Source of the DNA: Marasmius tenuissimus
Taxonomy: Eukaryota > Basidiomycota > Agaricomycetes > Agaricales > Marasmiaceae
Direction of reading: 5' to 3'
Length of the DNA stretch: 64,000 nt
Assembly: GCA_029532415.1 (NCBI GenBank)
Contig: JAQOTA010000020.1
Location: 372,001 to 436,000 of the forward strand
The translations under genes and the position numbers were made by a program. Positions 12,450-49,403 of the stretch are shown here, in pieces. The notes below the pieces were generated by a model. The model saw only the letters and a program-made list of their open reading frames with translations. It did no database searches and was not told where the DNA came from. The first letter of the stretch is position 1; every line of letters starts with the position of its first letter.

Positions 12450-13005
12450 ATAACCACGAGTACGATATAGAGCTGCCCAAAGCTTGACTTTAACAATAGT
12501 CATATGAGTTAGTTGAGTTATCAAGTTCCAAGTTCAACTTCTACACCGACCGACTGGCAGAAGAAATATAATCCGGAGGTGCTTCCTCATCTGCCTCCAA
12601 TAGTATTCCCAGTCTTCTTGTCATGACACCCAGCTGGGTCTGCAGCATCGAGAGATCTACCGCACTGACGGGAAAGGAGAGTGAGCGAGGTGGACGATTA
12701 CTGGACTCTTCTCCATGGCAACTGTCCCGATATGGGTTACTCGTACGATTTGGCCTGTCGTTACTCTGGAAGCTCTGCCGTCCGGTTCCGAACACTGTAT
12801 TGGCCTCATGTGATGATTCTCAAGCTGTAGTGATGGGATCCGTGAGAGTCGACCGCATGAAATCCACTTTCTCTCCATATGAGACTAATGGGGAGATTGG
12901 GCAAGGAACCAAAGTTTTGTTGAACTCTTGCACTGCTACGAATGTCGATCAGAGGTCAAGACAGGGACTCATACACGCAATACATACAAATTCTTCATGC
13001 ATACC

Positions 13006-13326
13006 TGATGAGCCGGCATGACGCCTAGCGCAGAGGACTACAACATGGCTACACTACTACTTACCAGAGAGAAGTTTAGAGAGGTAGAGGTGAGACGTAG
13101 AAGCTCAAGCACACTATTGATTCAGGTAGAGAACTAAGAGCTTATATACATGAAGATACAATAGAGTTACCATATAGAGACGACAATAGAAATTGTACAT
13201 ATGTGCATAGTGAACGATGAAGAATAGAACAATAGCGAATGCATTGTCCCGCATAATACAATGGCGGGAAGTATGAACCAGGACTTCGGATATACTGGGA
13301 TCTAATAATAGTCCATGGATTCAACA
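13006..13326 (-). repeat. 3' LTR of element B
   Basis: In sense it starts TGTTGAATCC and ends GGCTCATCA. It differs from the 5' LTR at about five positions of 321, four of which are C/T or G/A changes at CpG sites. The purine tract (gcgagggggtg in sense) abuts it at 13327-13337. Confidence 0.92.
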
Positions 13327-15895
13327 CACCCCCTCGCTAAGTGCAGCTGAAAAGCGCATCTGAGCGAATCAAGTGGACGAATAGAATTCAAGTCCAAGGT
13401 GATCTCTGAACCGTGAGAACTTCTCATGACTGAGATTCTTTGTAAACATGTCTGCGGGAGTACGACTTTGCCATCTTTAACACACGATCGAATATAATGA
13501 TATCGAATATCAATGTGCTTGGTTCGGCGCTCTTGAACCGGATTAGATGCAATGAAGATAGAGCCTTGATTGTCACCGCAGATTGGAATAGGACCTAAGT
13601 CAATACCAAGTTCAGAGAGTAGCGATCTTATCCAGGAAGCTTGACAACTGCAATCCGACAGTGCCATATACTCAGCCTCAGTGGAAGAAAGTGCTACAGT
13701 CTTCTGGGCATGTGATTGCCATGAGAAGATGCCGCCTGCTAACTTGAAGAAGTAGCCAGTGATCGAACGGTGTTTGATAGGATCGGCAGCCCAATCTGAG
13801 TCTGTGAACGCAAGAAGACCTCCATTGGAGTCACCATCATAAACAAGTGAATAATCTGATTTGCCAGCAAGATAGCAGCAGATATACAGAGCTTTATCGA
13901 GGTGTTCCTTCGTTGGATTAGAAGAGAACTGGGAAAGCTTCGTAACTGCATAGGCAATATCAGAACGTGTGCCTAGCATAATGTACAGAAGTGATCCAAT
14001 CACAGACTGGAACTTGGAGCGAATGGCAGGATTGACTGGACCATCATTGGGAGTTGGCACATAGCCAGCAGGTAAGGGTGTAGGAGCACCTTTCGCATTC
14101 TGCATCCCAAAGCGTTCAAGGACTTTCTTCAGATAATCCTTCTGTTCAATCATGATCTTATTGCCTTCGCGACAAATGCTCATGTGGAGAAACTCACTAG
14201 CATTGCCCATATCACGACATTCCCATCAAGCCATGAACTCGGCTTTCTTCTTGTCAACAAAAGCTTTGTTAGGACCCATGAAGAGTGCATCATCAACGTA
14301 GATGATCGCATACACAACTTCACCACTCTTCGGATCTTTGCAGATGAAGAGTCCAGCATCGGAAGTTAGGCGTTTGAAGCCTAGTACTTCCATAGATGAG
14401 CTGAGGGTTCGCCACCACTCAAGGGCAGCTTGCTTTAGTCCATATAATGCACAACGCAGGCGTAATACTATACATTCTTGGCCCTTGACTTTGAAGCCTT
14501 CAGGTTGTTCCATGTAAATCTCCTCAACAAGATCGCCGTAAAAGAAAGCATTCTTGACATCAACTGAGGTGATGTACCAGTTCTTAAGAGCTGCAAGAGC
14601 AAGCATCATATGAACAGTCTCATAATGAACAACTGGTGAGAAGATGTCATCAAAGTTGACACCTTCGAGCCTGAGAGAAACCTTTGGCAACAAGTCTTGC
14701 TTTCTTGCAACCATTCGACTTAATGTCGAAGACCCATCTATTTCTGATGGCTTTGCGACCTTTAGGCAAGTCACAGAGTTCGAAGACCTTGCGCTTACGA
14801 AGTGCCTCAAGTTCTTTGGAGCAAGTGTTCCTCCATTCCTTCTGTTGCTCAACAGGCAACTTTAGAATATTGCGGAGTGTCCACTCTCTGATGTTAGAGA
14901 AATCAGGAGTATCGGACGTTGGAAGCACATCGTAAACTGGAACAGCATTGTTCAACAGGTAAATCACAAATCCTACTCCCCCTTCTTGGGTCAGTCTTTC
15001 GACTATGCTTTCTTCCTCATGCGACTCAGTGCTTCCACTGGGTTCTGGAGCAGGCAGAGGCAGAAGTGGACCAGGAATCCCCTTTTTACCACCTTTGCCG
15101 TTCCTAGATCACGAAGAGCTAGGACAATCAACTGGATGTGAAGGTTCTTTATCTCCAGTGACGTTTCTCCAAGTATTCTTATTCTCTAAGTCGCAAATAA
15201 TGTCTGAGGGTTTATTTGGGTTCCGCTTTTCCCCAAATATATTACCAGGTTGCATTGTACCCTTCCGCTGCCTCGAAGACCGGCGTGGACCATCCGCTGC
15301 TGGTGCAGGCGGAGGAACGGCGGGTTCGCCTGGAGGCGTCAGAGGACCAGATTGAGGGAGTGGCACATCCCCTGGCGCAGGGCCACCTGAGGTTCTGATC
15401 TCTTAGAAGGTTCGGAGCGACGTCTGAGATCTGGGAACGGAGTATCGTCCCATCCATCATCAGAGTCTTCATCTTCCGAAGGAATGTTGGGATATTCACC
15501 CAAAGTGAATGGTTTACTACCGACAGGTGTAAAACCACAAGTTTTGGCATCAGGACACTTGTTATACAGCGTCTCATCAAATAGTGCAGTGCTACCTTTG
15601 AATACGGAATTATTGCTTTGCATGAACAGGAAGCCTTTCATCCCGTCTTGGTAGCCAATGAAAGTCATCAACTCACTGCAAGGAGCAAGCTTATTCTTCC
15701 TACAATCTTCAGGAATGAAGATGTAGGCTGCACAACCCATAACTCGGAGATGTGAAACATCAGGTGCTTTGCTGTAAAGCATTTCGAACGGAGTTCGCCA
15801 GCTCAATTGTTGCACAGGAGTGTGATTGTAGAGGTGAACAGCGTGCACATGGCAGAATTCCCACCAGGACTGAGGCATACAAGCTTCAAAGCGAA
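13327..15895 (-). pseudogene. element B pol: integrase C-terminus, RT and RNase H, frameshifted
   Basis: Reading down from 15895: the integrase end (SWWEFCHVHAVHLYNHTP, then the GCAAYIF region, 15878-15339), a Pro-rich linker, RT (NRWVFDIKSNG, then DVKNAFFYGDL, then YVDDALFMGP near 14290), and RNase H (AFTDSDWAADP, then STEAEYMALSD) to about 13420. The pieces lie in several frames with breaks near 15350-15580, 14850-14700 and 14220, so no single polyprotein can be made. The catalytic YVDD is retained. The upstream half of the integrase is found inverted at 16351-18304. Confidence 0.88.
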
Positions 15896-16350
15896 TGTTG
15901 ATCCAGCATAGTTAATGTGCACAGTGGTATAACGAAGTAAACCTCACATGGGTAATACACAGAGTGTTCTTGTAGACTTGAGATGCTTGTGAAGAGGTGA
16001 TAATCGAGTAGATTGTCCTTAGGCTCAAGGCCTTGGAATACCAGCTTTTATACACAACTTTCTGTACATGTAAGAGTAATTACAATAGTATGAAACTACT
16101 ACTAGAAGTAGGTATTTAGCCAATACTAATGAGTCTTTCGTCTGTTGTGCCTCGCACTTTGGACTATAAGCATCATACTTGATGCAACTACATATGTAGT
16201 AGATATCTACAGTGTCATTTGTGAAGCAATAACTACGTAGATACATTCTTGCATGAAAGCACAAGTGTTCCTAGAGGTGTAGCTCCATAAATAGTATGAC
16301 GCGTAAACAACACGTCAATATGTATCACATGATATCCATCATGTTCAACA
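15896..16350 (-). mobile_element. lone LTR of family C inside B integrase (C1)
   Basis: 455 bp, in sense TGTTGAACATGATGG to TGGATCAACA, nearly identical to the LTRs at 18305-18760 and 26702-27542 but in opposite orientation. The left flank is gcgaa (15891-15895). The flank on its right (agaac, 16351) does not match it; the partner of gcgaa is found as ttcgc at 18300-18304. This is the first half of the inversion evidence. Confidence 0.9.
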
Positions 16351-18304
16351 AGAACAAGGGTAAGAAGAAGAAGCAGCAGCGTAGTACCCGCAGTGGTATC
16401 AACCAGCACAAGGGTCCCAGCAACGCCAGCAGTAACAACAGCGGTAACAATAGGTCTCATGGTCACTCCCATCTTGTGTCCTACGCATTCGTCGTTGCTT
16501 CCCCTCCTCCTGTCCGTCCTTACTCCTCGATCACTGACCGCAGGGAATGTATTGCATTGAATGCAGTCAACAACTCCTTGTGCACTGAGATTGCTAGCGC
16601 CCCTCCCAGCCGTGCTAGAGGATCTCCGCCCCCAGTGCACTTCACTGGTCACTGGGACAAGTCTTGTGACAGCACTGTTCCTCCCGCTGTCAAGAAGAAT
16701 CCGGCTGCCATGCAGTCCTTCACTGGCTTCAAGCCATCCGAGTCAGTATTTGATGATGTACATGAAGCACGTTCACTTGCTGACAGACTTGGTGTCCCTA
16801 AGACGGCGCGGCATCTCAAACCATTCGAACAGATCGTCACGTCCACCGCCAATTGTTCGCTCCAGGATCGTATCTTGAAGCCTGGTTCCTCGTCCAAGCA
16901 AGTTCTGGAGGACAATTCGGAAGATGAAGGAGCCAGACGTCCTTCTTCTACTTCTTCTAAACATGCTCGCAGCGCTGATCCTGATGAAGATGTAGAGATA
17001 GACTGGGGATCTGACGATGGTATGGACGATATGACTTCTTTTTTCGGTAATGATGTTGACAACAACATTGCCAAAGCTGCAGGAGTAGAGGATGTCCTGG
17101 ATGACGTCTCTCTTGGATTGTTCCACGATGACAGGCAAGTTCCATATCTTGAGCTGCTTTCCCAAGCTGATGCAAACCTACAGCGCTGCTCTCAACTAGT
17201 TGGTATCAGTAGTGTGCGCAGTAGTCGTAGTGATCTGGTATCACTTGTACATTTTTGCAATGCTACTTCGACCCACTTTGTGGGATGTACTCAATATAAG
17301 GGAAAGAAAAGTGTGAACAACGCACAGGGTTGGCTCCTTGATTCTGGTGCCTCCTCTCATTTCACGAATGACATGAATGATTTCACTGAATATGAAATGC
17401 TTGATGGTCCTATTGTAAATACTGCGAATAAGGGCAACCCTATACAGATCAAGGGTAAAGACACAGTCTTCATTAAGCATAACGTAAAAGGACATGACGG
17501 GAAACTTACTGAGCATGTTTCGCGTCTCTATCCTGTCTACTATATACCGCAATTGGATATACACTTGCTATCCATGGGAGAGTTCCTTCAAGATGGTCTA
17601 CCAATTCGTGGAAACGCGAAGTTAGCCTTCTACTCATCACAGCAACGACAGTCGCTTGTTTCCTACCCTCATATGCCTGGTCAAACCATTTATTGGGTAC
17701 ACTTGGGAAAGCAGCTGCTGAGGTTTTAATGGCCAAGTCAGTCGTTTATAACGTCGACTACGATATTGAGCACAGACACTTTGGGCATCCATTGGGTAAA
17801 GCCCTGAACAAAGCACGGAAACATACGCAACGTTTCCCACTTGACCTTAAGATGCCTACTAAGAAGACACCTCTGTGTCGTGGTTGTGCTGAAGGCAAGA
17901 TGCATGAGAAATTGTTCCTCAACTCTACAACGAGAGCTTCTAAACCGTTTGAACGCATATGTTCAGATTTGAAGTTGTACCTGGCTGAATTTTATCACCG
18001 GTACAAGTACTACATCTCTTTTCTCGATGACTGCACGTCCTACGTTTGGACCTCCAAGCTCAAGACAAAGGACGAGGCAGTACCCGCTTTGAGGGACTTC
18101 CTTACTATGGTCAAGATGCAATTCAATGCCGTTGTCAAGACCTGGATGTCTGATGAAGGGGGAGAGTACAAAGGAGATAAGTTCGATGCAGTACTGAAAG
18201 AGTATGGGATCCAAAGGGATCAAAGCATACTGTATACACCACAACAAAACGGTTGTGCTGAACAATTCAACAGGACTATTCATGGGAAGGCTGAAGCTCT
18301 TCGC
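16351..18304 (+). pseudogene. inverted piece of element B: gag end, protease, integrase start
   Basis: Reads on the plus strand although the rest of B is on the minus strand. It encodes the basic gag end (KNKGKKKKQQRS), an intact protease motif WLLDSGASSHFT near 17335, then after a frameshift near 17700-17730 the integrase HRHFGH, CRGC zinc site and catalytic core (CSDLK, MSDEGGEYK, then EQFNRTI). It stops at KAEALR, exactly where the minus-strand piece at 15895 resumes. Its ends are agaac (16351-16355) and ttcgc (18300-18304), the inverted partners of gttct at 27543 and gcgaa at 15891. Confidence 0.9.
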
Positions 18305-18760
18305 TGTTGAACATGATGGATATCATGTGATACATATTGACATGTTGTTTACGCGTCACACTATTTATGAAGCTACGCCTCTAGGAACACTTGTGCTCTC
18401 ATGCAAGAATGTATCTACGTAGTTATTGCTTCACAAATGACACTGTAGATATCTACTACATATGTAGTTGCATCAAGTATGATGCTTATAGTCCAAAGTG
18501 CGAGGCACAACAGACGAAAGACTCATTAGTATTGGCTAAATACCTACTTCTAGTAGTAGTTTCATACTATTGTAATTACTCTTACATGTACAGAAAGTTG
18601 TGTATAAAAGCTGGTATTCCAAGGCCTTGAGCCTAAGGACAATCTACTCGATTATCACCTCTTCACAAGCATCTCAAGTCTACAAGAACACTCTGTGTAT
18701 TACCCATGTGAGGTTTACTTCGTTATACCCACTGTGCACTTTAACTATGCTGGCTCAACA
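18305..18760 (+). repeat. 5' LTR of element C (C2)
   Basis: 456 bp, TGTTGAACATG to GGCTCAACA, followed directly by the PBS. Its left flank (ttcgc) is not the partner of the flank after the 3' LTR (gttct), which is explained by the inversion of 16351-18304. Confidence 0.93.
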
Positions 18761-18773
18761 GGTTATGAGCCCC
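18761..18773 (+). other. primer-binding site of element C
   Basis: ggttatgagcccc directly after the LTR. Its complement, ggggctcataacc, looks like the anticodon arm of initiator tRNA-Met (CAT anticodon), as in Drosophila copia, which is primed by a 5' half of tRNA-iMet. Confidence 0.75.
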
Positions 18774-19729
18774 GCAAGCGGTCGTCAGGTCGATGTTATG
18801 ATCGGAGTAGCTAATACTTTCCATGTGTCACCACCATCCTAACAGACAACCTGTAACCTACATGGGTTAAGGAAGTCTCTAGCGATGTCAAAGGCTCGTC
18901 ATTGACGATTGTCTGGTGTCAGGATCAGGGTTCTTCGTCCCTTATATCCATCCACTCAGGTCCCCGTACAAGTTGCATGTTGCATGAACGCATGTACATA
19001 CTGTCTTGGCCTCATCTTCTTCAGCATGAACCTATCCGTTTTTACGGCTCTGTTCCTCTGCTGACAACCTGGATTAGGCTTTGGCCATCTATTGCCACTG
19101 TCTGATACCGATGATAGTTTAATGGTTGGCGGTGGTCCTCAGCAGAGGCACCAAACCAGTTTGCCATGATTCCTGAAGGCTGAAACATGCCGGGGAAATT
19201 TGATTTCCCTTACAACTAGGACTTTGTATGATACTACTTTTACGGTATCACATGGCCATTTTTAGTATGTACAGGGACTCCCCTCACGTCTGCCTTTCTC
19301 ATCCACGCTATTGTTAGATCTTGTACCAGTCTCTAGTAGTTTGGTCGTTTGTCATATGCTCAAGGCATCTTCGGATGTAGTAACCATACGGAGTAATGGG
19401 GGATCTAGTAATGACTTTCTCAAGGCACGACATTTATATTTGCTAGTCTGGGATTGAGACCAGATAGCACAATGGACACCAGACACACACACTGGAAGGT
19501 TACTGTAAGACCCTTCTCAAGCGGGCAGGGCTATGTAACCAGATTAACTACCTGCACTTACCTGCACGGTGGATTTCCCCATAGCTTGCTTGACGCATAC
19601 AGCCTGTTGAAAGTCCTAGACATTTTGATGCATGTCTTGGTGTGCATTGAACCCTATTTCTTTTATGGGTTGTCTTCTAATGGAAGACTTTATTGATTGA
19701 CACTACTCTTAGCGTCACCCTTCTAATAT
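18774..19729 (+). other. leader of element C, no gene seen
   Basis: About 950 bp between PBS and gag. Only short frames; no motif recognised. Presumably untranslated leader. Confidence 0.5.
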
Positions 19730-21070
19730 TTGAAGAGTATGCTCACAGGACTTTTCGCAGACCTCAATATGTCTAACCAATCAGGCTCTTCTATACATTT
19801 ACCACAATTGCCAGGGGTCTTTTCAGAACCCTCAGCAATGCCGGTCAAAAACACATTGGGACACACCTTTGGTGTGGATGTGGGGAATGCAGTAGAAGTA
19901 TATACTATGGATCCAATTCATTCGCTTGTATCAGAGAGTAGTTTTCCGACTGGGTCGGGAGGCATTAATTTATTTCCAGTTTTGTTAGATGATGGTTTGA
20001 ACTTTGAAGAGTGGTACCGATTAATCAAAGGCTTTCTATTCTCACATGGAATTCCAACCATGGTAGAAGAAGCAGCACCACAACAGTCAAATCCAGCTAT
20101 GGATGCTGAAAATACTGTGCTGAAAGAATGGACAGCCAAACAAGATAAGATAATCGGAATTATTATGATGCAAACAAAGCGTATTCATAAACCACATATT
20201 GATAGAACTTCAGTTCCGAACACTCTGGCAAAATTTAGAGAAATCTTTGGGACTCAGTCTTCTTCTCAGTTGCTTGATATATGCACGCAACTCCATAACG
20301 TCCAATTCTTTGACAGCGTAAACCCAGTTCCTGGGATAAATTTTATGTTGATGAATAAAGAAGAACTTGCTACACTGGGTGTAACAATTTCGGACGAGCT
20401 GTTTTGCCTTATGGTCACAGCTAAACTACCGGAGAAGCGTTGGCAACTCTTCAAGCAGCATGTTACTCGCATGAAGGAAGAATTGAAACCAACAGATATT
20501 ATCACTGGAATCAGTAATGAATGGAATAGAAGAAGTGGAAACTCTGTACCTCCTGCTTATGCTGCGTATAATGCCAAAATATCTGGCATCAATAGATATC
20601 AATCTGCTCCCAACTGGTCTGGTCAATCAAATCGTCCTGGTAACAAATCTGGTGGTTCTTCAAACCAAAAGAAAAATAACAATAGAAACCAGAACCAGAA
20701 CAACCAGAGTCAAAGTGGGAAATCGTCTTCAAAAAAGAAGAAAGGTGGAAAGAAGCAGAAAGGCAAAGGAAAACAGAAAAGTCCTCAAGAAGGGGGGCAA
20801 AAATCGCACGCAGTGGTAATTGAACCTCTTGAGGAACTTTCATCTTCTAAAATTCGTACAAATGCAGTTAAAAAGTTGACAAGTTCAGCTTTTGAACATG
20901 AAATGGCTGGTCCTAAACATGTTCATATGTCCTATCATTATCCATCTGGTAGTACTACTGCACCAAATCCATTCCAAAACACATATGATTTACAACTTGC
21001 ACACCTAGAAGAGAGAATTGCTGCCAATAGAGAAGGATGCCCAGAGCGTTTTATTTCTGTTGCTGAATAG
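19730..21070 (+). CDS. element C Gag
   Basis: A 446-codon frame. After an N-terminal segment of about 75 residues it has a gag-type core (GINLFPVLLDDGLNFEEWYR, then EWTAKQDKIIGIIMMQTK and QLFKQHVTRMKEELKP, residues about 80-270) like the UBN2/retrotransposon-gag families of copia elements. The C-terminal third is rich in Asn, Gln, Lys and Ser, with clustered lysines (SSKKKKGGKKQKGKGKQK). No CCHC zinc knuckle is visible, so the basic stretch may bind RNA instead. It ends at a TAG, after which coding-like sequence continues in the next open stretch; whether this stop is native or a mutation is uncertain. Confidence 0.75.
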   Translation: MKSMLTGLFADLNMSNQSGSSIHLPQLPGVFSEPSAMPVKNTLGHTFGVDVGNAVEVYTMDPIHSLVSESSFPTGSGGINLFPVLLDDGLNFEEWYRLIKGFLFSHGIPTMVEEAAPQQSNPAMDAENTVLKEWTAKQDKIIGIIMMQTKRIHKPHIDRTSVPNTLAKFREIFGTQSSSQLLDICTQLHNVQFFDSVNPVPGINFMLMNKEELATLGVTISDELFCLMVTAKLPEKRWQLFKQHVTRMKEELKPTDIITGISNEWNRRSGNSVPPAYAAYNAKISGINRYQSAPNWSGQSNRPGNKSGGSSNQKKNNNRNQNQNNQSQSGKSSSKKKKGGKKQKGKGKQKSPQEGGQKSHAVVIEPLEELSSSKIRTNAVKKLTSSAFEHEMAGPKHVHMSYHYPSGSTTAPNPFQNTYDLQLAHLEERIAANREGCPERFISVAE

Positions 21071-23400
21071 AATGCACATCAAACTGCTCACATAAATGAA
21101 CAAGTTCAACAAATTGATGAGGCAATTGCTTCATCAGCTTCCACAGCAGACACAGAACAACAATATGACAGCGATGGTGATCCCATGCCAACTCTGGTTG
21201 GGGTCTCTTCCTCAGAAAATGAATCTGAGAACTCTTATGGCGTTGGATCACATAGTGAAGAACATATTAATTTCACTATGCCTCATAGACAGGCGAGTCC
21301 TGAGACAATTCTGTCTGCGGACAGAACTGAGGAAGGACAGAATGTCGAAGAGGAAACTACAAATGTAAACATACAGACTGGAGAATGGCCTCCCCATAAT
21401 GCATTTATAGAATATGATCCTTGGGCCACACATCTTTTACCAAGAGATGATCCTGATCAAACATCCAAGTTTATGCCTGAGAATTATAACTCAGATAATA
21501 AACCTACTCTTAATCCCACTAATAGAAAAATACAATGGCAGTTCCTAGAGAACTACCAATGGGATACTAAGGGTATTACAGATGAGATTAGGATTCCTTG
21601 ACCTCACCCAGAAATATTAAATGGAGTGAGACTTGCGCCACCTAAAGCTCCACACTTCTATGATATAGAAGATACATGGAGAAATGATGATCGCAAGAAA
21701 GATGTGATGGCCAATACTCGAAAGTATATGATTAAGAAACAATCAGATCATAAACTATGGATCTGGATTCTTATCAGAACTACAAATCGAATTGTAATGT
21801 ACCCTATTCGAAGAGATGCAGTTCATAATCTCACTCCGAGACATGCACTCTTCGAATTAGACTTACATGAACCAATTCTACATGTAGAATCAGTAGAGGA
21901 TCAAGGTTTCTTCAGTGACCACAATTATCGAAGCTGGAACATTCAACATCTTTCTAGAGTCATTACTGATATCAATAATCAAAATTGGATCAGTACTGTT
22001 GATGATTACATTGACATATATGGCAGTGTAAAAAACCAAAGAAAGACAATCTTTCAAGTATTTCGCAAGTCGAGATACTTAAGGGAAGAAAATCTTCCTA
22101 TAAACATTCTTAATCCGATTTTTTGGGATTCACTGGTTAAACTAGAATTGGAAGGAAAATGGTTGAATGGAACAATTAATACGCTTCCTTACTCTCATTT
22201 CAGAGCACAAGCATTTATTCGTAGACACCAAACATGGCGTCTTGTGCCGAGAATTTATTTGAGAGAAGCCATTAATGAAAATATGATCTTATATAAATGG
22301 ATGAACAACGAAAATATCGATGTTCCCATGTCTTGTGCTGATGTACCACATAGAACGTCACAGGAAAATGAATCTCCAATTTATTATCCTGAAGACTTTA
22401 TGGTACTAGCTGAAGCTAATGCACTTGAAAGATCAATCCAGGACTATGAATTTGATAGTCGTTATCCTGGAAACTATATTCAAATGGCTGAGGAACAAAA
22501 TTGTCCTTATTCACCACCCTTTCCTTCATATGCATCTATCAATAGACCTGCGACTACTCCACCTGTACTCGAACGTACCCTGGAACGACCTTCACTTTCA
22601 CCACCGGAATCGCCCGGATCTTTTTATGGAGTCCAATCCCTAGAGGAAGACTATATTGATGTACCCAATCGTCCTGGGACTACTATTCCGACTCCTCCTA
22701 TTTCTGAACCGGAAGATAGCAGTATGCTAGATCTGGAAGAACAACCTGAGGTTGATCCTTGGGTAATGTCAGAAGATGATCCCAGAAATCCGCAATTTGA
22801 AAATTACGGACCTGGAGTCAATAATAGTATGGACATTGAAATCAATAGACTTCATGAACGTCAGCAACTAGATTCAGTTCAACAACAAATTGCAACTGGA
22901 ACTAGCATTGGCAACATATCTATGGTTGTTAATGATAACAATCCAGAGCAAGCTAGAAAATTTGTTGAATGGCAGCTTTATCATTCACAAATGTCAGCAG
23001 CAATGGATGCTGAATGTATACAATTAGAAAGGGATCAACGTCAACGACAAGAAGAGTATGATAGAAGAAGAGCTTGTACGCTCGCTCTTATCCAACAAGG
23101 ATATCAACAGATCCAACTCCAATCAAATGAAAGATACTTCGATGATGGAGATTATGGTGATGGAGATTATGGTGATGGCCTTGAAGGAGTAGATGACGTT
23201 GATGGATGGGCAGAAAGTAACGATCGTGGAGACTGGCAAGTATTTCAATCTTCTGATAGTCAAACTTTCACTAAACACTCAATGCAGAACTATCATGTAC
23301 TAAGAAACTCAGTACCTAGAAAAACTAGAATAACTTCTGTATTTGCTATGACAAAACTAGAGTCATATTGTTCTGCATTAATGAGTGATTGTGAAATTGG
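21071..23400 (+). pseudogene. extra unrecognised coding region in element C
   Basis: Open stretches 21096-21601 and 21626-23400, separated by a stop, encode about 770 residues between gag and the protease. Order: an acidic Ser-rich stretch, a mixed hydrophobic domain rich in Trp and Arg (for example KLWIWILIRTTNRIVMYPIR, then NPIFWDSLVKLELEGKW and QTWRLVPRIYLREAI), a Pro-rich linker, a Gln/Arg-rich helical segment (LERDQRQRQEEYDRRR) and an acidic DGDYGDGDYGDG repeat. Element A has only about 250 residues between its basic gag tail and its protease. I do not recognise the domain. It could be a captured host gene or a lineage-specific gag extension. Confidence 0.6.
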
Positions 23401-25115
23401 AAATATGCGAGAAGCCTGGCTACTAGCTAGCAGTGCATCTGCGCATATGACTCCGTTTATGACAGATTTCTCAGACTATCTGATTTTTGAAACGCCTTTA
23501 AGTCTTACAACTTCAGCTGGGGATAAAGCACGAGTGCAAATAACAGGATATGATAGTGTCAATATTCGACATACCAATAGTGCAGGAGTGACACACCTCA
23601 CCAAGCTATTTCCAGTGATGTATAATCCAGACAGCCCACATCGTTTAATCTCTGCCAGAAAATTCAGAAGTATAGGATACTATACTGTTCTGGATTCTCC
23701 AGAGACTTTAATCCGGAGCAAGAAAGACAATTTTCTTCTCATGAGCTTTTATCCGAGCTATGGAGAAGATAATTTGCAATGGATGAATGCGAAGATTCTT
23801 GTGGGAGAAGCTTCCTTCACATCAGTCGCATCTTTCTCAATTGATGATTCCAAACTTTGGCATAGGTGAATGGGACACATAAACCCTAAAGTCTTAGAGA
23901 AACTAGAGGATAATGTTAAAGGGTTTCCAAAGAGATTGGCTATCTCTAAGGAAGATAAACCTTGTTGTGGTTGTGCGAAAGGCAAAATGGTTGCAAAACC
24001 ATACCCTTCTTCTTCAAAATGTGCAAAGAAGCCTCCAGAAGCAGTTCATGGTGATTTGATTGAATTTCCTACCCGCTCTTATTATCAAAACGAATATGCA
24101 TTAACCTTATTTGATGATGCAAGCACCTGAAAATTGGTGGGAATTTGCAATTCTCACAGCAGTCCATATCTATAATAGAACTCCTATACGTTCGAGGAAG
24201 TATAAAACACCTGTTGAATTGTTTGAAGGAAAGAAACCAGATGTCTCATACTTTAAGACATTTGGTTGTGGTGCCTATGTGTACCTACCGAAACGTAAAA
24301 ACAAGCTTTCCCCGCATTCAGAAGCAATAATATTCATTGGATATGAAAGTGGATCAAAAGCTTATCACTTCTTTCGTACAACAAACAATTCAGTGTACAT
24401 TACTCCACAAGCAGTTTTCGATGAAAACTGGTTTCCTAAATGTCAAAAGGAATTGCCCGGATCCATAGAGTTTGATAAAACCGACAAACCTGTTCAGTCT
24501 ATACCCTTTCCATCATACCCCTACAATGGCCATGAGGATCATAATAATGATAATAGTTCATTTGATTCATCACCTCCACCAAATACCCATGATGACAATC
24601 ATGAGCATGGGGGAGATCCTCCCATGGATCCAAACCAAGATGATGAAAGCGATGATGTGCACAACAGTTATCATCCACCTACTGATGGACCCGAATCACC
24701 GAAAGGTTCCGGTACTAATCCTAATCAGTATGGTCCGGATCCACAGTCTGCTGGTCCTTCAGGAGCAACAAATCCTTTTAGTTTTTGTCAAGATGATTAT
24801 GATGAGTGGCAAAATATACAAAATCAGCCACCAGCTCCTAGAAGGAATCCACCAAGAACCAGACTTCCACCTGTTCGACTATTTAATGTCTATGGAAACA
24901 GGACTCCTGTAGAAATAGAGCGCGGCATTGATTCTGAAGCACGCTGGAGAAGTCAGATAAATCTGATAAATGAACCTGAAACAGTACCAGTAAGGGTTCC
25001 TGATCCAGTTACTCCTATGGAGACAGATGAAGATATGTGCGACCTTGCTCAAGAAGGGGGAGTAAATTACCTGGTTTATTTGCTGAATAATGGTCATCAA
25101 CTATATGGTCTTTAA
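23400..25115 (+). pseudogene. element C protease and integrase, inactivated
   Basis: The protease motif normally DSGA(S)H reads LLASSASAHMTP, so the catalytic Asp is lost. At 23867 a TGA splits LWHR and MGHINPK in the integrase HHCC zinc domain (CCGCAKGK follows). At about 24110 LFDDAST runs directly into PENWWEF in another frame. Some 130 residues of the integrase core, including the second Asp and the Glu of the triad, are missing. The integrase C-terminus (GCGAYVYLPKRKN, GYESG) and a Pro/His/Asp-rich linker continue to 25115. Confidence 0.8.
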
Positions 25116-26666
25116 GCCAGTAGTTATGATGATGTTCGTGAATGGACATATAAACAAGTTCAGAAACGTCCTAAAGATGAACGACCATCTTGGGAAGTAG
25201 CATGCAGACTGGAACTACAATCACTGGAAGATTGAAATGTCTTTGATGTGGTTACACTACCTAAAGGCTAAAAAGTGGTTAAATCCTGCTGGGTATTTGA
25301 TATCAAGTCTGATGGCTGTAAAAAGGCAAGACTTGTTGCGAAAGGATTTTTGCAAAAACAAGGAATAGACTATAACGAGTTGTTCTCTCCTGTAGTACGA
25401 TTTGAAACCGTACGACTTTTATTGGCACTAGCAGCGCTTGAAGATTGGGAGATCTCTGTGCTAGACGTTAAAAAAGCATTTCTATATGGTGCCTTAGATG
25501 AGGAGATATACATGGAACAGCCTGAAGGCTTCATTGAGGACTCCAGCAAGGTTTGGAGGTTACGCAAAGCATTATATGGATTAAAACAGGCATCTCGAGC
25601 CTGGTGGCGTCAATGTACTGAATCCATGAAATGTCTGGGATTCAAACGATGCTTATCTGATGCTGGCGTATATGTCTTCAGCAAAAATGGCAATATGGTT
25701 ATTGCTATAGTATATGTTGATGATGCCTTGTTTATGGGTCCAGATCGCAACCTAGTCAATAGACTGAAAAGTGATTTCATGAAAATCTGGGAATGCCGAG
25801 ATTTAGGCGAGCCTACAGAATTCTTACGAATGCGAATTACTCGTAATCGGAAGAACCGCACACTGATCCTTGATCAGCGGGACTATCTTGATAAGATAAT
25901 TCGTAAATTCGGAGTTCTGAACGTCAAAACGGCATATACGCCATTGCCTGATGGCTATAATCCTACCCAAAACCAAGGGAAGGTTAATCCCAAGATTAGG
26001 CATAGATTCCAATCAGTGATAGGATCATTGCTTTATCTGGCACTCGGAACACGTCCAGATATTTCTTTTGTTGTAATCAAAATGTCACAATACGGTGCAA
26101 ATCCTAGTGAGGAACACCTACAGAAGGCTTTATACATCGTGAAATATTTGGTTCACACTGCAAAGTATGAACTTATTTACGATGGGAAATCAAATCATGG
26201 ATTGATTGCCTTTGCTGACTCTGATTGGGCAACTGATAAAGATTATTGTGAATCACAGACTGGATATATCGTAAAGCTTGCCGATGCACCAGTTTGTTGG
26301 GTTTCTCAGAAACAAAAGACTGTTGCATTATCATCCACAGTAGCAGAGTATATGGCTCTCTCTGACTGTATGCATCAGGCATGTTGAATGAAGTCGTTGT
26401 TGAACGAATTAAACTTTCCCATCAAATCAATACCATGTGTCAGTGACAATCAAGGTGCTATCTTCCTCAGTAGCAATGAAGCTACTGATAAAAGGACGAA
26501 ACACATTGACAATCAGTATCATTTTATTAGGGGAGCAGTCGAAGAAAACAAAGTTGAAATATACTTTGTTGAGACTGCTAAACAACCTGCAGACCTTCTT
26601 ACAAAGAATCTTGGCAGAACAAAGTTTGAATTGTTCAGGCAATCTTTAGGATTAACTTTTCACTAG
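25116..26666 (+). pseudogene. element C reverse transcriptase and RNase H
   Basis: Weak coding from 25116, then a 370-codon frame from 25275: CWVFDIKSDG, DVKKAFLYGAL, YVDDALFMGP (catalytic YVDD kept), then RNase H AFADSDWATD and STVAEYMALSD. A TGA at 26385-26387 replaces an expected Trp codon (QACW(I/M) in element A's order), after which SDNQGAIFLSS and ADLLTKNL follow to a stop at 26666. The RT core is thus intact, but the polyprotein is broken. Confidence 0.85.
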
Positions 26667-26690
26667 GCATTATCTTGCATGATGAACTTA

Positions 26691-26701
26691 GTGAGGAAGA
26701 G
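26691..26701 (+). other. polypurine tract of element C
   Basis: gtgaggaagag abuts the 3' LTR at 26702, the expected plus-strand primer site. Confidence 0.65.
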
Positions 26702-27542
26702 TGTTGAACATGATGGATATCATGTGATACATATTGACGTGTTGTTTACGCATCACACTATTTATAGAGCTACGTCTCTAGGAACACTTGCGCTCTCATG
26801 CAAGAATGTATCTAAGTAGTTATTGCTTCACAAATGACACTGTAGATATCTACTACATATGTAGTTGCATCAAGTCTGATGCTGTCAGCAATCACCAGAT
26901 ATAACCTGGTGACGCGTCGCACTAAGCTTTCAGACAAGAGGGAACGAGGCAAAGATAAGAGAACTCTATACTGGTGAAAAATAAACCAGCTCAAGACTGG
27001 GGAATACATGCAGAGTATCTACTTCTTATATACTACTTGGAGGACTGCAGCGTGTGTCTACAGTGAGGTATGACATTGAGGTATGACATTGTGAAACAGT
27101 ATCTGAAACAGGACTGACATGTGTCTACAGCATGTGGGTCCCTTCATATATCTACCATGTGTCCGTATGATAAGATATAAGTCATGTGAGGGATAAGATA
27201 TAGACAAGATGGAAAAGGATAAGATAAGGAGGAAAGATAAGATAGGAGGGAAATTCATGACAGATGCTTATAGTCCAAAGTGCGAGGCACAACAGACGAA
27301 AGACTCATTAGTATTGGCTAAATACCTACTTCTAGTAGTAGTTTCATACTATTGTAATTACTCTTGCATGTACAGAAAGTTGTGTATAAAAGCTGGTATT
27401 CCAAGGCCTCAAGCCTAAGGACAATCTACTCGATTATCACCTCTTCACAAGCATCTCAAGTCTACAAGAACACTCTGTGTATTACCCATGTGAGGTTTAC
27501 TTCGTTATACCCACTGTGCACTTTAACTATGCTGGCTCAACA
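26702..27542 (+). repeat. 3' LTR of element C (C3), split by solo LTR D
   Basis: 841 bp in total; removing D and one gatgc leaves 456 bp, equal to the 5' LTR. It ends GGCTCAACA and is followed by gttct (27543-27547), whose inverted partner is agaac at 16351. Confidence 0.92.
26883..27262. mobile_element. solo LTR D
   Basis: 380 bp starting TGTCAGCAATC and ending TTCATGACA (inverted ends TGTCA/TGACA), flanked by a perfect 5-bp duplication gatgc (26878-26882 and 27263-27267). It contains repeated aagataagat words. No other copy is in the window, so the superfamily is unknown. It is the youngest layer of the nest. Confidence 0.85.
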
Positions 27543-28362
27543 GTTCTGGTTCGAAGAGGGGCATTGCTGCTGCTGCTTTGGTGGGCGAGTGTTGGTCTGC
27601 TGCTGATACCCACGCTGCTGACGTTGCTGCTACAGGCGCTGCTGCTGACCGAACAATGGTTCTTGATTACCAACACGTTTCACCGCAGAGAGGCGGTTGG
27701 CGAGCTGCAGGTTCTGGTGTTCATACTCGACCATGATAGCATCATGGACTTTCAAAACAGTAATGCAATCTTCATCCTCAGGATCCCTAACATGATTTGG
27801 ATGAGGCAGCGTCCCATTCTGGAGGAATAACGGCAATGAGCAAGAGGGATTTGATCAACTCAGGAAGAACCACTCCTACCTCGGAGAATCGTTCGATGTA
27901 GGACTTGAACTTGGCAATGCCGGCTTGGGGATGAGAGGTGATAGGTCTGAAAGAGATGAGTTTCACAAAGTCGCCATAGATGGCAGACAGAGTGGGCTTG
28001 CTGTAGGTGAGGTTCAGCTATTCCCAAGCCTTTTTGGCGTTCATGGCCTTAATCGGATCGAAGACCTCCTTGGTGGTGGTAATCTGGATGATTCCCATGA
28101 GCTGGAGATCTTCCTTGTCCCAAGCAAGACTTTCCTTGACCCAGGCAGCGTGCTCCTCAGGAGGGACGGTGGCGCAGACAACAGGAGTAACCCCTGCAGG
28201 GCTAGTCACAGTGCCAAGGGGCATGGAGGGAGGTGGTGCTTGGCCAGTGAGATGATCGTAAAGACCTTGGGTCTTGCACACAGCTTCCATCTCGCTGTAG
28301 TAGGTCTGTTTGAAGTTGGTGCCATCAAAGCGACCAGAGAAGTATTTCTTAACATCAAACAT
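27543..28362 (-). pseudogene. element B Gag, N-terminal part
   Basis: Starts at ATG 28362 with MFDVKKYFSGRFDGTNFKQ, a copia gag start, and continues through a UBN2-like core (ATVPPEEHAAWVKESLAWD). A TAG near 28018 (CAG to TAG would explain it) is followed by in-frame continuation TYSKPTLSAIYGDF up to LIAVIPPEWDAA, then a frameshift near 27830 and a Gln-rich run to the C insertion point. The missing gag C-terminus is the inverted piece at 16351. Confidence 0.82.
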
Positions 28363-28621
28363 GGTAGTAAGAGGTTGAGAGGTTTGGTGTTGGATCTAGA
28401 AAAGACAGCATCAGCATGCATCTAATCAACACAGGGAGCAGCCATCAAGGCGCTATGCTCAACGAAGAGCATTGGATCCTTGAGATCCAATGTTGTCGAA
28501 GGACATACATCAATGCCATAGATCGAGCACTCAGTTAAGAGGTCGATGGCCACATGCAGGTCTAGCCTGGCTAGCCGATGACAGCGGCCTAGGGGCGCTC
28601 GTTATTGTAGTCGGGCTAACC

Positions 28622-28634
28622 GGGGCCCACAACC
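28622..28634 (-). other. primer-binding site of element B
   Basis: In sense ggttgtgggcccc, next to the 5' LTR. It differs from element C's site at two A-to-G positions, each still able to pair with the tRNA as G:U. Confidence 0.7.
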
Positions 28635-28955
28635 TGATGAGCCGGCATGACACCTAGTGCAGAGGACTACAACATGGCTACACTACTACTTACCAGAGAG
28701 AAGTTTAGAGAGGTAGAGGTGAGACGTAGAAGCTCAAGCACACTATTGATTCAGGTAGAGAACTAAGAGCTTATATACATGAAGATACAATAGAGTTACC
28801 ATATAGAGACGACAATAGAAATTGTACATATGTGCATAGTGAACGATGAAGAATAGAACAATAGCGAATGCATTGTCCCGCATTATACAATGGCGGGAAG
28901 TATGAACCGGGACTTCGGATATACTGGGATCTAATAATAGTCCACGGATTCAACA
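28635..28955 (-). repeat. 5' LTR of element B
   Basis: 321 bp, partner of 13006-13326, followed on the host side by the target copy atacc (28956-28960). Confidence 0.92.
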
Positions 28956-29067
28956 ATACCTCGGTTTCTCCGCCGCCAGCAAATAAGTAACAATCCCAAT
29001 ACTATAAGCATCAGGACCAAACCAATCACTAATCCGGATATGAGGCCTGTATTGGGTTTGTGGCAAG

Positions 29068-29989
29068 TGTGACGAAGCTGCAACCAAACTGATGCACTCG
29101 GGGACCGAGGTTTTAAGACTTAAACGGCAACTGCTAACGCGCAACACAACACAGGACGTGGAGATTGAGGGAGCAAAATGACTGCTCAGGAATTAGAACA
29201 CCAATGTAGATACTTGTGTTAAGTATCTAGGATTTAATACACGCTATTGTAACGTCAAAACTCGAGGCGGGAATCTCAGACTTCGTCTCAGAACCACACA
29301 AGTGTTTGAAACATAATCGGGACTCTTTATTATTATATAAGGAGTCAATGCTATCTACAAGAACAACGAGGGACTCGAAGGATAACCAGGATTGAAGGGA
29401 ACAAAGAATTGTGCACAAAAAGTGCAAAAGAACAGCTATAGGAGCGGGAGAGACAGCTGGAGATAGCTAAGGCTATCTAGAACTAGGAAAATTAGAGAGT
29501 AGGAGAGGGGAGACGAAACAGCACAGAGAAATGGGGCGGAAACAACAATGGGGGCAAAAGACAACACGGGAGGGGCACAAAATATCTGGACTGAGGATTT
29601 CGGGCGAAATCCTCAGTCCTTTTATACATTCACACTATCTATTACACGGAGATCTCGTACCTACGGTCCGGACATGGATAATAGATTTCTCAGAAAGGAA
29701 ATTTGAACAGCTTTTCCGCAGCAGCATGACACAAGAGAACATACCGTTTAGGACTATTGGGTCTTGAAGCTAAAGAATTAAATACGGCAGCGGGAGCAGG
29801 CGGTGGATACTGTGAGAGAACAGGTAATGGGACTTGGGAATAAATCATTGAATAAGTGCGGAGCTGCGGTATTCATTGGTTTTGAAGCCCAGTGCCTGAA
29901 ATTACCACGGGCGTCAGCCGGATCGACCCGGCCCGTTGATAACTCGGAAGTTCATGCGTCAGGGTATGGTCGATTTTTGACTCATGACA
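29068..29989 (-). mobile_element. solo LTR E1
   Basis: 922 bp; in sense it starts TGTCATGAGTC and ends TTCGTCACA. Flanks are gcaag (29063-29067) and gcgag (29990-29994), a 5-bp duplication with one G/A difference at a CpG. It matches the 868-bp copy at 56493-57360, apart from indels in the middle. A TATA motif and a 26-nt hairpin (29591-29616) are conserved with that copy. It separates the stalk and membrane helix of the host gene. Confidence 0.9.
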
Positions 29990-43317: not shown

Positions 43318-43575
43318 TGTTGAGGCAGAGGTCCTGCCCACGCAGTGGCAGCATGGGACAGACTAGCTCACCTGGAGATAGGCTTAGAGGCAGCAACAAG
43401 AGTAGTAAAAGTACTGGTATTGCATGTAGATACAGAGCTACTTATATACTATACAGAGGTGGCTGTATCTTCTATAACAGGAGTGACTAGGAATAGCATA
43501 GATCATAGTAAAATGATTGAAGCATATATGCGGCCTGATACAATGGTCCATACATCCGGTAGTCCAGATTCAACA
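43318..43575 (-). repeat. 3' LTR of element A
   Basis: 258 bp, TGTTGAATC to CCTCAACA in sense. It carries tccAgatt where the 5' LTR has tccGgatt, a CpG change. The purine tract gcgagggggag (in sense) is at 43576-43586. Confidence 0.95.
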
Positions 43576-43616
43576 CTCCCCCTCGCTAAGTGCGGCACAA
43601 GTAGAGCACAAAGCGT

Positions 43617-46600
43617 CTATTCGGACAAATAAAATTCAAGTCCAAGATGTTCTCTAAAAGCGGAGAACTTGACATGACCCAAATTCTTGGTAAACATGTC
43701 TGCAGGATTGTAGGCACCATCAATAAAGAAAAGATCGACCTTGCGGTCTGAAACACATTCGCGAATGTAGTGATAGCGAATATCAATGTGTTTGGTGCGA
43801 CGTTCTTGAACTGGGTTAGAGGCGATGAAAATCGAGCCTTGATTATCTCCACATATGGGAACGGGAGTCATATCAATCCCAAGTTCAGAGAGTAACTGTC
43901 GAATCCACACAGCTTGACGACTACAGTCGGATAGCGCCATGTATTCAGCTTCAGTGGATGAAAGCGCAACAGTCTTCTGGGCGCGTGATTGCCAACAGAA
44001 GATGCCACCTGCCAATTTGAAGAAATAGCCCGTGATCGACCGACGCTTTATAGGATCAGCAGCCCAATCAGAATCAGTGAATGCTAGTAAACCTCCGTCA
44101 GAGGCTCCATCATAGACAAGTGCATAGTCTGGAGTTCCTGCAAGATAGTGGCAAATATAAAGTGCCTTCTTCAGGTGATCCTCCGATGGATTAGCAGAGA
44201 ATTGAGAAAGCTTTGTAACAGCGTAGGCAATATCAGGACGAGTGCCAAGCATGATATACAGAAGCGATCCAATCACTGATTGATATCGAGCGCGACGTTC
44301 GGGATCAACAGGACCTTCGTTAGGTTGTGGAATATAGCCGGCAGGAAGAGGAGTATCTGCTGCTTTTGCATTCTGCATGCCAAATCGCTTCAAGACCTTC
44401 TTCAGGTAGTCGGTCTGGTCAAGAAGGATTTTACGGCCTTTGCGACGAATACACATGCGCAAGAACTCTTTGACTTCTCCAGGATCACGGCATTCCCAAT
44501 GAGCCATAAACTCAGCTTTCTTCTTTTCGACAAAGGCTTTGTTGGGTCCAAGGAATAATGCATTGTCGACATAGATCAAAGCGATACATTCATCACCAGT
44601 CTCACGATCTTTACAGATGAAGAGACCTGCATCGGAAGTTAAGTGTTTGAAGCCCATTACTTCCATGGATGAGCTGAGAGCACGCCACCACTCAAGAGCG
44701 GCTTGCTTCAGTCCATATAATGCATGGCGAAGGCGATAGACTTTGCCTTCCTGACCCTTAACCTTGAAACCTTCAGGTTGATCCATATAGATCTCTTCTT
44801 TAAGTTCACCATAAAGAAAGGCGTTCTTCACATCCAATGCCTGAATGTGCCAGTTTTTGAGAGCTGCTAATGCGAGCATCATCCGTACAGTTTCAAACCG
44901 CACAACTGGTGAGAAGATCTCATCAAAGTCAACACCTTCAACCTGAGAGAAACCCTTGGCAAGAAGTCGAGCTTTCTTTTGACCGTCTGACTTAATGTCA
45001 AACACCCATCTGTTTTTGACAGCCTTGCGACCTTTAGGTAGGTCAACCAATTCGAAGACCTTGCGCTTGTGAAGAGCCTCTAGTTCATCGCAGCAAGCGG
45101 CCTTCCATTCTCTCTGCTGCTCAGCAGGCAGCTTCAGTATGTCATGGAGAGTCCACTCTCGAATGTTAGACATATCGGTGAGGTCATCGTGAACGGGAAC
45201 TGCCTGATTTAACAGATAAATCACGAAACCTACTCCCCCTTCCTGGGATAATTGTTGCACTAAGCTATCAGGCTGACTCCCCCTGGAGTTACACATGGTA
45301 GACAGACTGGCACGATTAGTCCCAGGAACCTTTCTAGGTCTGCCTCTCCTACGAGTAGTAGGTGGATCCATAGGTTCTCTATCACCTGTGGCATCTCTCC
45401 ATGTAGAATTTTTCTCCATGTCACGCACAATGCGCGAGGGATTATTTGGGTCTCGTTGTTCACCAAATACATTATCAGGTTGCTTAGTACCCATCTGTTT
45501 CCTGCCTGAACGCCTTGGCGGCGGAGTCTGCTCTTGCCCACCCACTGGTGTAGGTGGCCTAGGAGGCTGGAACGGAGGATCAGGATCAGGATGTTGACGT
45601 TCACCCTGAGGTACAGGACCATCTCCATCATCGTCATGAGGAGATTCCGATCGCTTTGGAAGGTTCTCGGGAGGATAAAGATCGTCATCAGACGAATCAT
45701 CATCACTATCCGAAGAGAAGTTGGGATTTTCACCCAATACCGGCGGTATTTCTGGGATTTCACCCATCGGGGTAAATCCACGCGGTTTCTTATCAGAACA
45801 CTTCGGGAACAAGTTTTCATCGAACAGAGCAGTAGCGCTTTTGAAGATACTATTGTTGGACATCTTCATGAAGACATATCCTTTCATGCCTTCCTGAAAA
45901 CCGATAAAGGTCATCAGTTCCGAACGCAGAGATAATTTGTTAACTTGACGCTTTTCCGGAATAAACGCATACGCTGCACATCCAAATACTCGAAGATCCG
46001 AAACATCCGGTGCACTGCCATGCAACTTCTCATGTGGGGTCAACCAACGTAAACGCTGGCACGGCGTCCGATTGTGAAGTGCAACAGCGTGCAACACACA
46101 GAATTCCCACCAAGAAGGTGGAAGACAAGCATCAAAGCGAAGAGCTTGAGCTTTCTCGACAATGGTCCGATTGAACCGTTCTGCACGACCATTCTGTTCC
46201 GGCGTATATGGAATGCTGGTCAGAATTTTGATACCGTGCTCCTTCAGTACATCATCGAAGGCATCCGATTTGTACTCTCCCCCTCCATCGGACATCCATT
46301 CCTTAATATCAACACCGAATTGTACCTTCACCATAGCAATAAAATCACGGAGCATTTTGACTGAGTCAGATTTGCGTCGCATGAGCATTGTCCAGCCATG
46401 TGAAGTACAGTCATCAACAAACGACATATACCATTTATATTTGTGGTACGACTCAGTGGGGAATTGTTTGAGGTCAGAGTGGATTTTTTCGAAGGGTTTC
46501 GAGGCACGGGTAGTGGAGTCAGGGAATGATCTGGAGTGCATCTTTCCTTCTGCACATCCTCGGCATAACCGGGTTTGCTTCGGTTTTCGGTCGAATTCCG

Positions 46601-48971: not shown

Positions 48972-49132
48972 AGGTCCAGAACCGGTGTTAACGGTCTGCC
49001 CATCATGACAGCGATTAAGCAGTCACAATGGTTATCGAGTGCAACGACCACAACAGTGCATCATCATAGGCAGCACACAATAAAGCGCACATCTTAGAGA
49101 GCTGCCATCGCAGGGCACATTGATAGGGCACC

Positions 49133-49145
49133 GGGGCCCATAACC
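49133..49145 (-). other. primer-binding site of element A
   Basis: In sense ggttatgggcccc, adjoining the 5' LTR. It has one A-to-G change from element C's site, still pairable as G:U with the tRNA-iMet anticodon arm. Confidence 0.72.
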
Positions 49146-49403
49146 TGTTGAGGCAGAGGTCCTGCCCACGCAGTGGCAGCATGGGACAGACTAGCTCACC
49201 TGGAGATAGGCTTAGAGGCAGCAACAAGAGTAGTAAAAGTACTGGGATTGCATGTAGATACAGAGCTACTTATATACTATACAGAGGTGGCTGTATCTTC
49301 TATAACAGGAGTGACTAGGAATAGCATAGATCATAGTAAAATGATTGAAGCATATATGCGGCCTGATACAATGGTCCATACATCCGGTAGTCCGGATTCA
49401 ACA
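49146..49403 (-). repeat. 5' LTR of element A
   Basis: 258 bp with TGTTGA..TCAACA ends, followed on the host side by gtttt. It contains a TATA-like tatataag. Confidence 0.95.

What the first reader, a model, noticed from the sequence alone, without database searches (positions are those of the whole stretch)
15891..27547. Inversion between two LTRs proven by exchanged target-site duplications
Two inverted family-C LTRs (15896-16350 and 18305-18760) bound a 1954-bp piece of element B that reads in the opposite direction to the rest of B. The 5-bp flank gcgaa left of the first LTR reappears inverted (ttcgc) at the far end of the piece. gttct after the C element's 3' LTR reappears inverted (agaac) at its near end. 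This is what one crossover between a lone C LTR in the integrase region and the 5' LTR of a C element in the gag region would leave.
Basis: partly seen in the sequence, partly recalled or inferred. Interest (0 to 1): 0.88.

Follow-up and report, generated by a model that had tools for sequence, protein, structure and literature searches.

The report
Inversion between two retrotransposon LTRs
In a mushroom-type fungal genome, two copies of a jumping gene that sat in opposite directions recombined and flipped the DNA between them, and the swapped 5-base insertion footprints still show it; two more pairs with the same swapped footprints turned up elsewhere in the genome.

Summary
A copia-type element B (13006-28955, minus strand) holds a 1954-bp piece (16351-18304) that reads backwards between two inverted C-family LTRs. 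The 5-bp target duplications are exchanged: gcgaa 15891-15895 with ttcgc 18300-18304, agaac 16351-16355 with gttct 27543-27547. Compared piece by piece, 29 of 29 other B copies fetched (of 39 listed) have the three pieces collinear on one strand; they overlap by exactly 5 bp at 27 of 29 (gag side) and 25 of 29 (integrase side) junctions. The two LTRs share a 329-bp identical tract (P about 0.0003), as gene conversion would leave; the second pair shows no such tract. A flank census found two more reciprocal pairs, C37:415168/425287 (C family) and C37:1072672/1097880 (D family). In the LTR lists examined, 3 of 3 same-family inverted insertion pairs closer than 20 kb are exchanged. The mechanism is known (Galileo inversions of Drosophila): a new member of a known kind. 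Its repetition in one genome, readable without an uninverted strain, is the interesting part. Misassembly is unlikely but cannot be excluded without reads.

The parts
13001..13005 (.). left TSD of element B (atacc)
   Evidence: sequence; repeats at 28956-28960
13006..13326 (-). 3' LTR of element B
   Evidence: 98% match to 28632-28955
13327..15895 (-). B piece 1: integrase C-terminal side and reverse transcriptase
   Evidence: tblastn, A aa 945-1783; RVT_2
15891..15895 (.). gcgaa, one half of the first exchanged TSD
15896..16350 (-). LTR1: C-family LTR at the first inversion junction
   Evidence: 98% to 18760-18305; 98% in own-genome search
16351..16355 (.). agaac, one half of the second exchanged TSD
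16351..18304 (+). inverted B piece 2: gag C-terminal side, Pol_BBD and integrase core
   Evidence: tblastn, A aa 348-945 on plus strand; PF22936, PF00665; at least 40 places in the genome (capped list)
18300..18304 (.). ttcgc, other half of the first exchanged TSD
18305..18760 (+). LTR2: 5' LTR of element C, second inversion junction
18761..26701 (+). element C interior (copia-type, coding frames interrupted)
   Evidence: tblastn to A polyprotein; Retrotran_gag_2, Pol_BBD, SH3_retrovirus, RVT_2
26702..27542 (+). 3' LTR of element C, split by nested D LTR
26883..27262 (+). nested solo LTR of family D (TG...CA, 380 bp, TSD GATGC)
   Evidence: at least 40 places in the genome (capped list)
27543..27547 (.). 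gttct, other half of the second exchanged TSD
27543..28634 (-). B piece 3: 5' leader and gag N-terminal side
   Evidence: tblastn, A aa 167-275
28635..28955 (-). 5' LTR of element B
28956..28960 (.). right TSD of element B (atacc)
43318..49403 (-). element A, related copia-type element used as yardstick (TSD gtttt)
   Evidence: LTRs 99%; open 1784-aa frame with five copia domains

Best explanation
Element B inserted first. Two C-family elements then inserted into B in opposite orientations, one in the integrase region (target gcgaa) and one in the gag region (target gttct). The first was, or became, a solo LTR. One homologous crossover between that LTR and the 5' LTR of the other C element inverted the 1954 bp between them together with the inner LTR parts, so each junction LTR now carries one TSD half from each insertion. 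Gene conversion made a 329-bp central stretch of the two LTRs identical. At a time not known, a D-family element inserted in the C 3' LTR and was reduced to a solo LTR. Shown here: anatomy, exchanged TSDs, empty sites in paralogous B copies, the identical tract. Inferred: the crossover and its place in the LTR, the conversion, and that the flip happened in the organism.
For: Exchanged TSDs on all four flanks. Collinearity in 29 of 29 fetched B copies, exact 5-bp overlaps at 27/29 and 25/29 junctions. Protein collinearity with A, the outer and inner pieces meeting at residue 945. LTR1 and LTR2 identical over positions 95-423: P 0.00027 uniform, 0.00015 weighted, 0 of 80 pairs of other LTRs with 6-10 differences. 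The minority alleles shared by all three LTRs of the locus lie in that tract; one of them, 293G, is in 3 of the 65 genomic copies found within one mismatch of a 26-base word, all three here. TSD control: 36 of 45 C insertions have exact and 4 one-off TSDs; 4 of the 5 mismatched ones form two reciprocal pairs (with two registers corrected by hand). Second pair: flanks as expected from the first LTR alone, and joined on two A-family copies with a 5-bp overlap. Third pair in another family, one of its two joined empty sites found at 7 places.
Against: No uninverted allele or read data could be examined. A mosaic of two parents is not resolved in the junction LTRs: of eight LTR1/LTR2 differences seven fit a single switch between 66 and 73 and one (55) does not, and six of the eight are states seen in none of 28 other copies, which say little. 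LTR1 and LTR2 share states at 65, 90 and 325 that the C 3' LTR lacks, so one bare crossover does not account for everything. The second pair shows no conversion tract (11 differences, longest identical run 136) and no convincing mosaic. One joined empty site of the third pair was not found.
Confidence: 0.9

Rival explanations
1. Assembly artefact: the assembler turned the stretch between two inverted LTRs, which would also exchange the TSDs on paper.
For: A false flip between inverted repeats gives the same picture, and all three cases involve close inverted copies.
Against: 456-bp LTRs 2 kb apart are short for an assembly whose contigs reach 6.9 Mb in 70 pieces, which points to long reads (inference). 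It recurs with 456-bp repeats and 9.7 kb between them.
Confidence: 0.06
2. One-step hybrid integration: two C cDNAs integrated together at two sites of B with their ends exchanged, leaving the swapped TSDs and the inversion without later recombination.
For: Gives the same TSD pattern; all three LTRs here share 293G, found in no other of the 65 copies, as sister cDNAs would.
Against: Predicts that LTR2 groups with the C 3' LTR and that differences are scattered; instead LTR2 is closer to LTR1 (8 differences) than to the C 3' LTR (11), and the LTR1/LTR2 differences avoid a 329-bp tract. 293G lies inside the tract, so conversion can explain it. In the second pair the two LTRs differ at 11 sites and one of them is only 3 differences from another genomic copy. 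Differences gathered after integration blur this test.
Confidence: 0.03
3. Variant of the best explanation: the partner at the integrase site was a complete C element at the time of crossover and lost its interior later.
For: Nothing here excludes it; solo LTRs with intact TSDs are common in the family (25 of 32 solos exact after register correction, 23 as scored).
Against: Needs no extra event in total, but its order of events is untested.
Confidence: 0.3

Closest known systems
Galileo-mediated inversions of Drosophila buzzatii (2j, 2q7, 2z3; PMC2775673, passages and part 1 of section 10)
   Same: Same-family TE copies in opposite orientation at both breakpoints, exchanged TSDs, single target copy in the unrearranged sequence, no deletion or duplication.
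   Different: [quoted passage not shown] here copia-type LTRs with 5-bp TSDs turn 2 kb inside another retrotransposon. Chimeric copies were shown there; here only a shared tract.
Inter-element recombination between LTRs (PMC2672092 REANNOTATE and PMC7156093 wheat, passages)
   Same: Recombination between LTRs of different copies.
   Different: The REANNOTATE passage says the program does not check TSDs; the wheat passage proposes a deletion between LTRs of the same orientation. Here the LTRs are inverted and exchanged TSDs are the evidence.

Membership tests
Inversion by ectopic recombination between TE copies (Galileo type) | Two same-family copies in opposite orientation at the two breakpoints | tested here: met
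Inversion by ectopic recombination between TE copies (Galileo type) | Exchanged TSDs | tested here: met
Inversion by ectopic recombination between TE copies (Galileo type) | One copy of each target in the unrearranged sequence, collinear order | tested here: met
   29 of 29 fetched paralogous B copies collinear; paralogues, not alleles
Inversion by ectopic recombination between TE copies (Galileo type) | No deletion or duplication at the breakpoints | tested here: met
   exact 5-bp overlaps at 27/29 and 25/29 junctions; the rest differ by local alignment ends
Inversion by ectopic recombination between TE copies (Galileo type) | Chimeric TE copies | tested here: inconclusive
   shared 329-bp tract significant, but no clean mosaic of two parents
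Inversion by ectopic recombination between TE copies (Galileo type) | Uninverted chromosomes known in the species | not testable with these tools
Ty1/copia LTR retrotransposons (elements A, B, C) | Integrase before reverse transcriptase, copia-type gag and RVT_2 | tested here: met
   A: gag 160-306, rve 824-924, RVT_2 1304-1542; B pieces and C match A in the same order; the order as defining feature is recalled
Ty1/copia LTR retrotransposons (elements A, B, C) | LTR ends TG..CA with 5-bp TSD | tested here: met
   36 of 45 C insertions with exact 5-bp TSD (with two registers corrected)
Hybrid-end (aberrant) integration | Junction copies match their donors throughout, without recombination footprint | tested here: inconclusive
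   leans against: LTR2 nearer to LTR1 (8) than to the C 3' LTR (11), differences avoid a 329-bp tract; later mutations blur the test

The most novel reading that the evidence does not exclude
Close inverted LTR pairs in this fungus are freely reversible switches: they flip and convert so often that orientation is near equilibrium and polymorphic within the species. In the LTR lists examined (66 C and 40 D LTRs) every same-family inverted insertion pair closer than 20 kb, 3 of 3, is in the exchanged state, while the next-nearest inverted pairs, 45 kb and more apart, show no exchange where flanks were read.
Probability: 0.2. Interest if true: 0.72.

Novelty: new member of a known kind. Interest (0 to 1): 0.5.

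Why it matters
A single long-read genome can yield its own list of small inversions, with no second strain: an LTR whose two 5-bp flanks disagree is matched to a partner with the reciprocal flanks. Applied to two families it gave three candidate inversions, each with at least one empty site seen, which makes the rate and distance dependence of ectopic recombination between dispersed repeats directly measurable. It also warns that 5'/3' LTR divergence cannot date such elements, because junction LTRs may be recombinant or converted.

Tried and rejected
Mosaic mapping of the crossover inside LTR1/LTR2: seven of eight differences fit a switch between positions 66 and 73, one disagrees, and most are private, so no breakpoint is claimed. 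Mosaic test for the second pair: no convincing parents, and no long identical tract. A reciprocal partner for the mismatched C element on C28 (GGCAC / ATACC): none with up to one mismatch in 18-base words; left unexplained. Joined empty site of the CAATC target of the third pair: none; of its GTCCT target: 7 places. No Rfam family and no tRNA in the window.

Papers: the phrase search gave two papers, both on Drosophila (PMC2775673, read as stated; PMC3355041, listing only). Searches gave none. Searches gave 7, 2, 4, 4 and 4 papers; of these I saw passages of PMC11844451, PMC10085805, PMC2672092, PMC7156093 and PMC3024322, and none of those passages describes an LTR inversion with exchanged TSDs. 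The rest I saw as listings only. The library holds openly licensed papers only.

Rows dropped before counts: 8 of 66 C LTRs (unpaired or truncated: C69:538799, C57:256667, C61:225850, C21:277332, C23:3313440, C23:3322085, C28:974011, C49:262998) and 8 of 40 D LTRs (unpaired halves). The C list is the 65 places (within one mismatch of a 26-base word) plus C62:200947; more diverged copies are not in it. The D list is the 40 scored places. LTR alignments used 28 other copies (matches under 400 bp or under 90% left out) or 36 (matches under 450 bp left out). Two C solos (C69:17157, C9:269571) were scored as mismatched because the match ended two bases short; in the right register (strings) they are exact. 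The flank table was typed by hand; full elements were paired by distance, orientation and inner flanks. Of the 39 other places matching the B piece, 29 were fetched.
Full report
What is there. The window (C11:372001-436000 of an unnamed 71-Mb genome in 70 contigs) holds a copia-type element B on the minus strand. Its LTRs are 13006-13326 and 28635-28955 and its own TSD is atacc. Inside B lie C-family LTRs at 15896-16350 (minus; LTR1) and 18305-18760 (plus; LTR2), the latter opening a C element that ends with its 3' LTR at 27542. That 3' LTR is split by a 380-bp solo LTR of another family, D (26883-27262, TSD GATGC). The host is probably a Marasmius-like mushroom: an F-box-like frame at 35585-37003 has its only two named relatives (of 3 hits, the third being the window's own protein) in Marasmius tenuissimus, 65-67% identical.

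The TSDs. The flanks of LTR1 are gcgaa and agaac, and those of the C element ttcgc and gttct. In LTR orientation they are GTTCT|TTCGC and TTCGC|GTTCT: neither insertion has its own duplication, and each has the other's half. As a control, of 45 C-family insertions with both flanks read, 36 have exact TSDs and 4 differ by one base; one search scored 34 exact, and two more are exact once a two-base register error is corrected. Five are mismatched, four of which form two reciprocal pairs; the fifth, on C28, has no partner found. By chance 0.0009 reciprocal pairs are expected.

Collinearity, tested piece by piece. Against the related element A (43318-49403, open 1784-aa frame), B piece 3 matches residues 167-275 on the minus strand, the inner piece 348-945 on the plus strand and piece 1 residues 945-1783 on the minus strand. 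The own genome holds at least 40 places matching the inner piece, this one included (a capped list). In all 29 other copies fetched the three pieces lie in one order on one strand. The gag-side join overlaps by exactly 5 bp in 27 of 29 copies; in the other two the matches end at a local difference (overlaps 8 and 1). The integrase-side join overlaps by exactly 5 bp in 25 of 29; in the other four the match stops one base short. These overlaps are the TSDs, so both empty sites are seen.

A recombination footprint. LTR1 and LTR2 differ at 8 positions, all in 1-94 or 424-456, leaving a 329-bp identical tract. That is unlikely by chance (0.00027 for random positions, 0.00015 weighted by variability; 0 of 80 pairs of other copies with 6-10 differences), although the C 3' LTR differs from both at five places in the tract. 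The six minority alleles shared by all three LTRs of the locus all lie in this tract. One, 293G, is in 3 of the 65 genomic copies within one mismatch of a 26-base word, all three here, and in 0 of 36 other aligned copies. Gene conversion with the crossover explains this. Where the crossover fell is not resolved. LTR1 and LTR2 also share states at 65, 90 and 325 that the C 3' LTR lacks, which calls for conversion, repeated exchange or repeated mutation; 90 and 325 stand in CpG-like contexts (my reading), so only 65 weighs much.

A second case. One C solo LTR, C37:415168-415623 (minus), had mismatched flanks CCGCA|AAGCC. A C LTR in the opposite orientation lies about 10 kb away. The fetched flanks are exactly that. 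The outer flank of one and the inner flank of the other meet on element A with a 5-bp overlap, CCGCA at 47600-47604, and also with a 5-bp overlap in a second A-family copy, L008. So this inversion has one breakpoint in an A-family element. Its two LTRs differ at 11 sites with a longest identical run of 136, so no conversion tract is seen there.

A third case, in another family. Among the 40 D LTRs scored, 22 are solos (16 exact TSDs, 4 one-off, 2 mismatched) and 10 make 5 full elements (2 exact, 1 one-off, 2 exchanged); 8 are unpaired halves (pairing by distance, orientation and inner flanks, by eye). The exchanged two are C37:1072672+..1078078+ (CAATC|GTCCT) and C37:1097880-..1081169- (GTCCT|CAATC). 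The LTRs of the second are 16.7 kb apart, against 5.4 kb in others, so it probably holds a nested insertion. The joined GTCCT target exists at 7 places in the genome (2 exact, 5 with one mismatch; reversed control 0); the joined CAATC target was not found.

Distance. In these two lists every same-family inverted pair of insertions closer than 20 kb (3 of 3) is in the exchanged state; the next nearest inverted pairs are 45 kb or more apart and show no exchange where flanks were read. The pattern fits easy recombination between close inverted copies, perhaps reversible. A misassembly would favour the same pairs, so reads are needed.

Compared with what is known. The signature is that of the Galileo inversions of Drosophila buzzatii: opposite orientation, exchanged TSDs, single target in the unrearranged sequence, and no deletion or duplication (PMC2775673: passages, part 1 of section 10). 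The same paper uses chimeric copies to exclude hybrid-element insertion; here that point is only partly met. The phrases for exchanged target duplications occur in two papers of the library, both on Drosophila. No LTR-based or fungal example was seen in the passages read or the listings, which cover openly licensed papers only and mostly titles and abstract beginnings, so this is not a claim of first sight.

Verdict. The event is an ordinary mechanism in a small, unusually readable form. Its interest lies in repetition within one genome and in the partner-free test that found the further cases.

Noticed in passing
G000:C37:415168-415623 and 425287-425742 (L028, L072): Second C-family LTR pair with reciprocal flanks CCGCA|AAGCC and AAGCC|CCGCA, one breakpoint inside an A-family element.
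   Followed up: yes
G000:C37:1072672-1098259: Two inverted D-family elements with reciprocal flanks CAATC|GTCCT and GTCCT|CAATC; GTCCT target found joined at 7 other places, CAATC target not.
   Followed up: partly
G000:C28:898067 and 907042: Full C element with mismatched flanks GGCAC / ATACC and no reciprocal partner found: perhaps a deletion or a partner lost.
   Followed up: partly
G000:C19:1963739 and C70:160492: Two D-family solo LTRs with mismatched flanks (TTGAC/TGTTC and ACACT/GTACT) and no partner in the list.
   Followed up: no
43318-49403: Element A: copia-type, TSD gtttt, LTRs differing at 2 of 258 positions, one open frame of 1784 aa.
   Followed up: partly
11626-11883: Solo LTR of the A family, 97% to A's LTRs, flanks CTTCC / CTTCT.
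   Followed up: no
29068-29989 and 56493-57360: Inverted dispersed repeat, 85% identical over about 0.9 kb, one copy close beside B.
   Followed up: no
LTR position 293 in 15896-16350, 18305-18760 and 26702-27542: A base found in 3 of the 65 C LTR copies, all three at this locus.
   Followed up: partly
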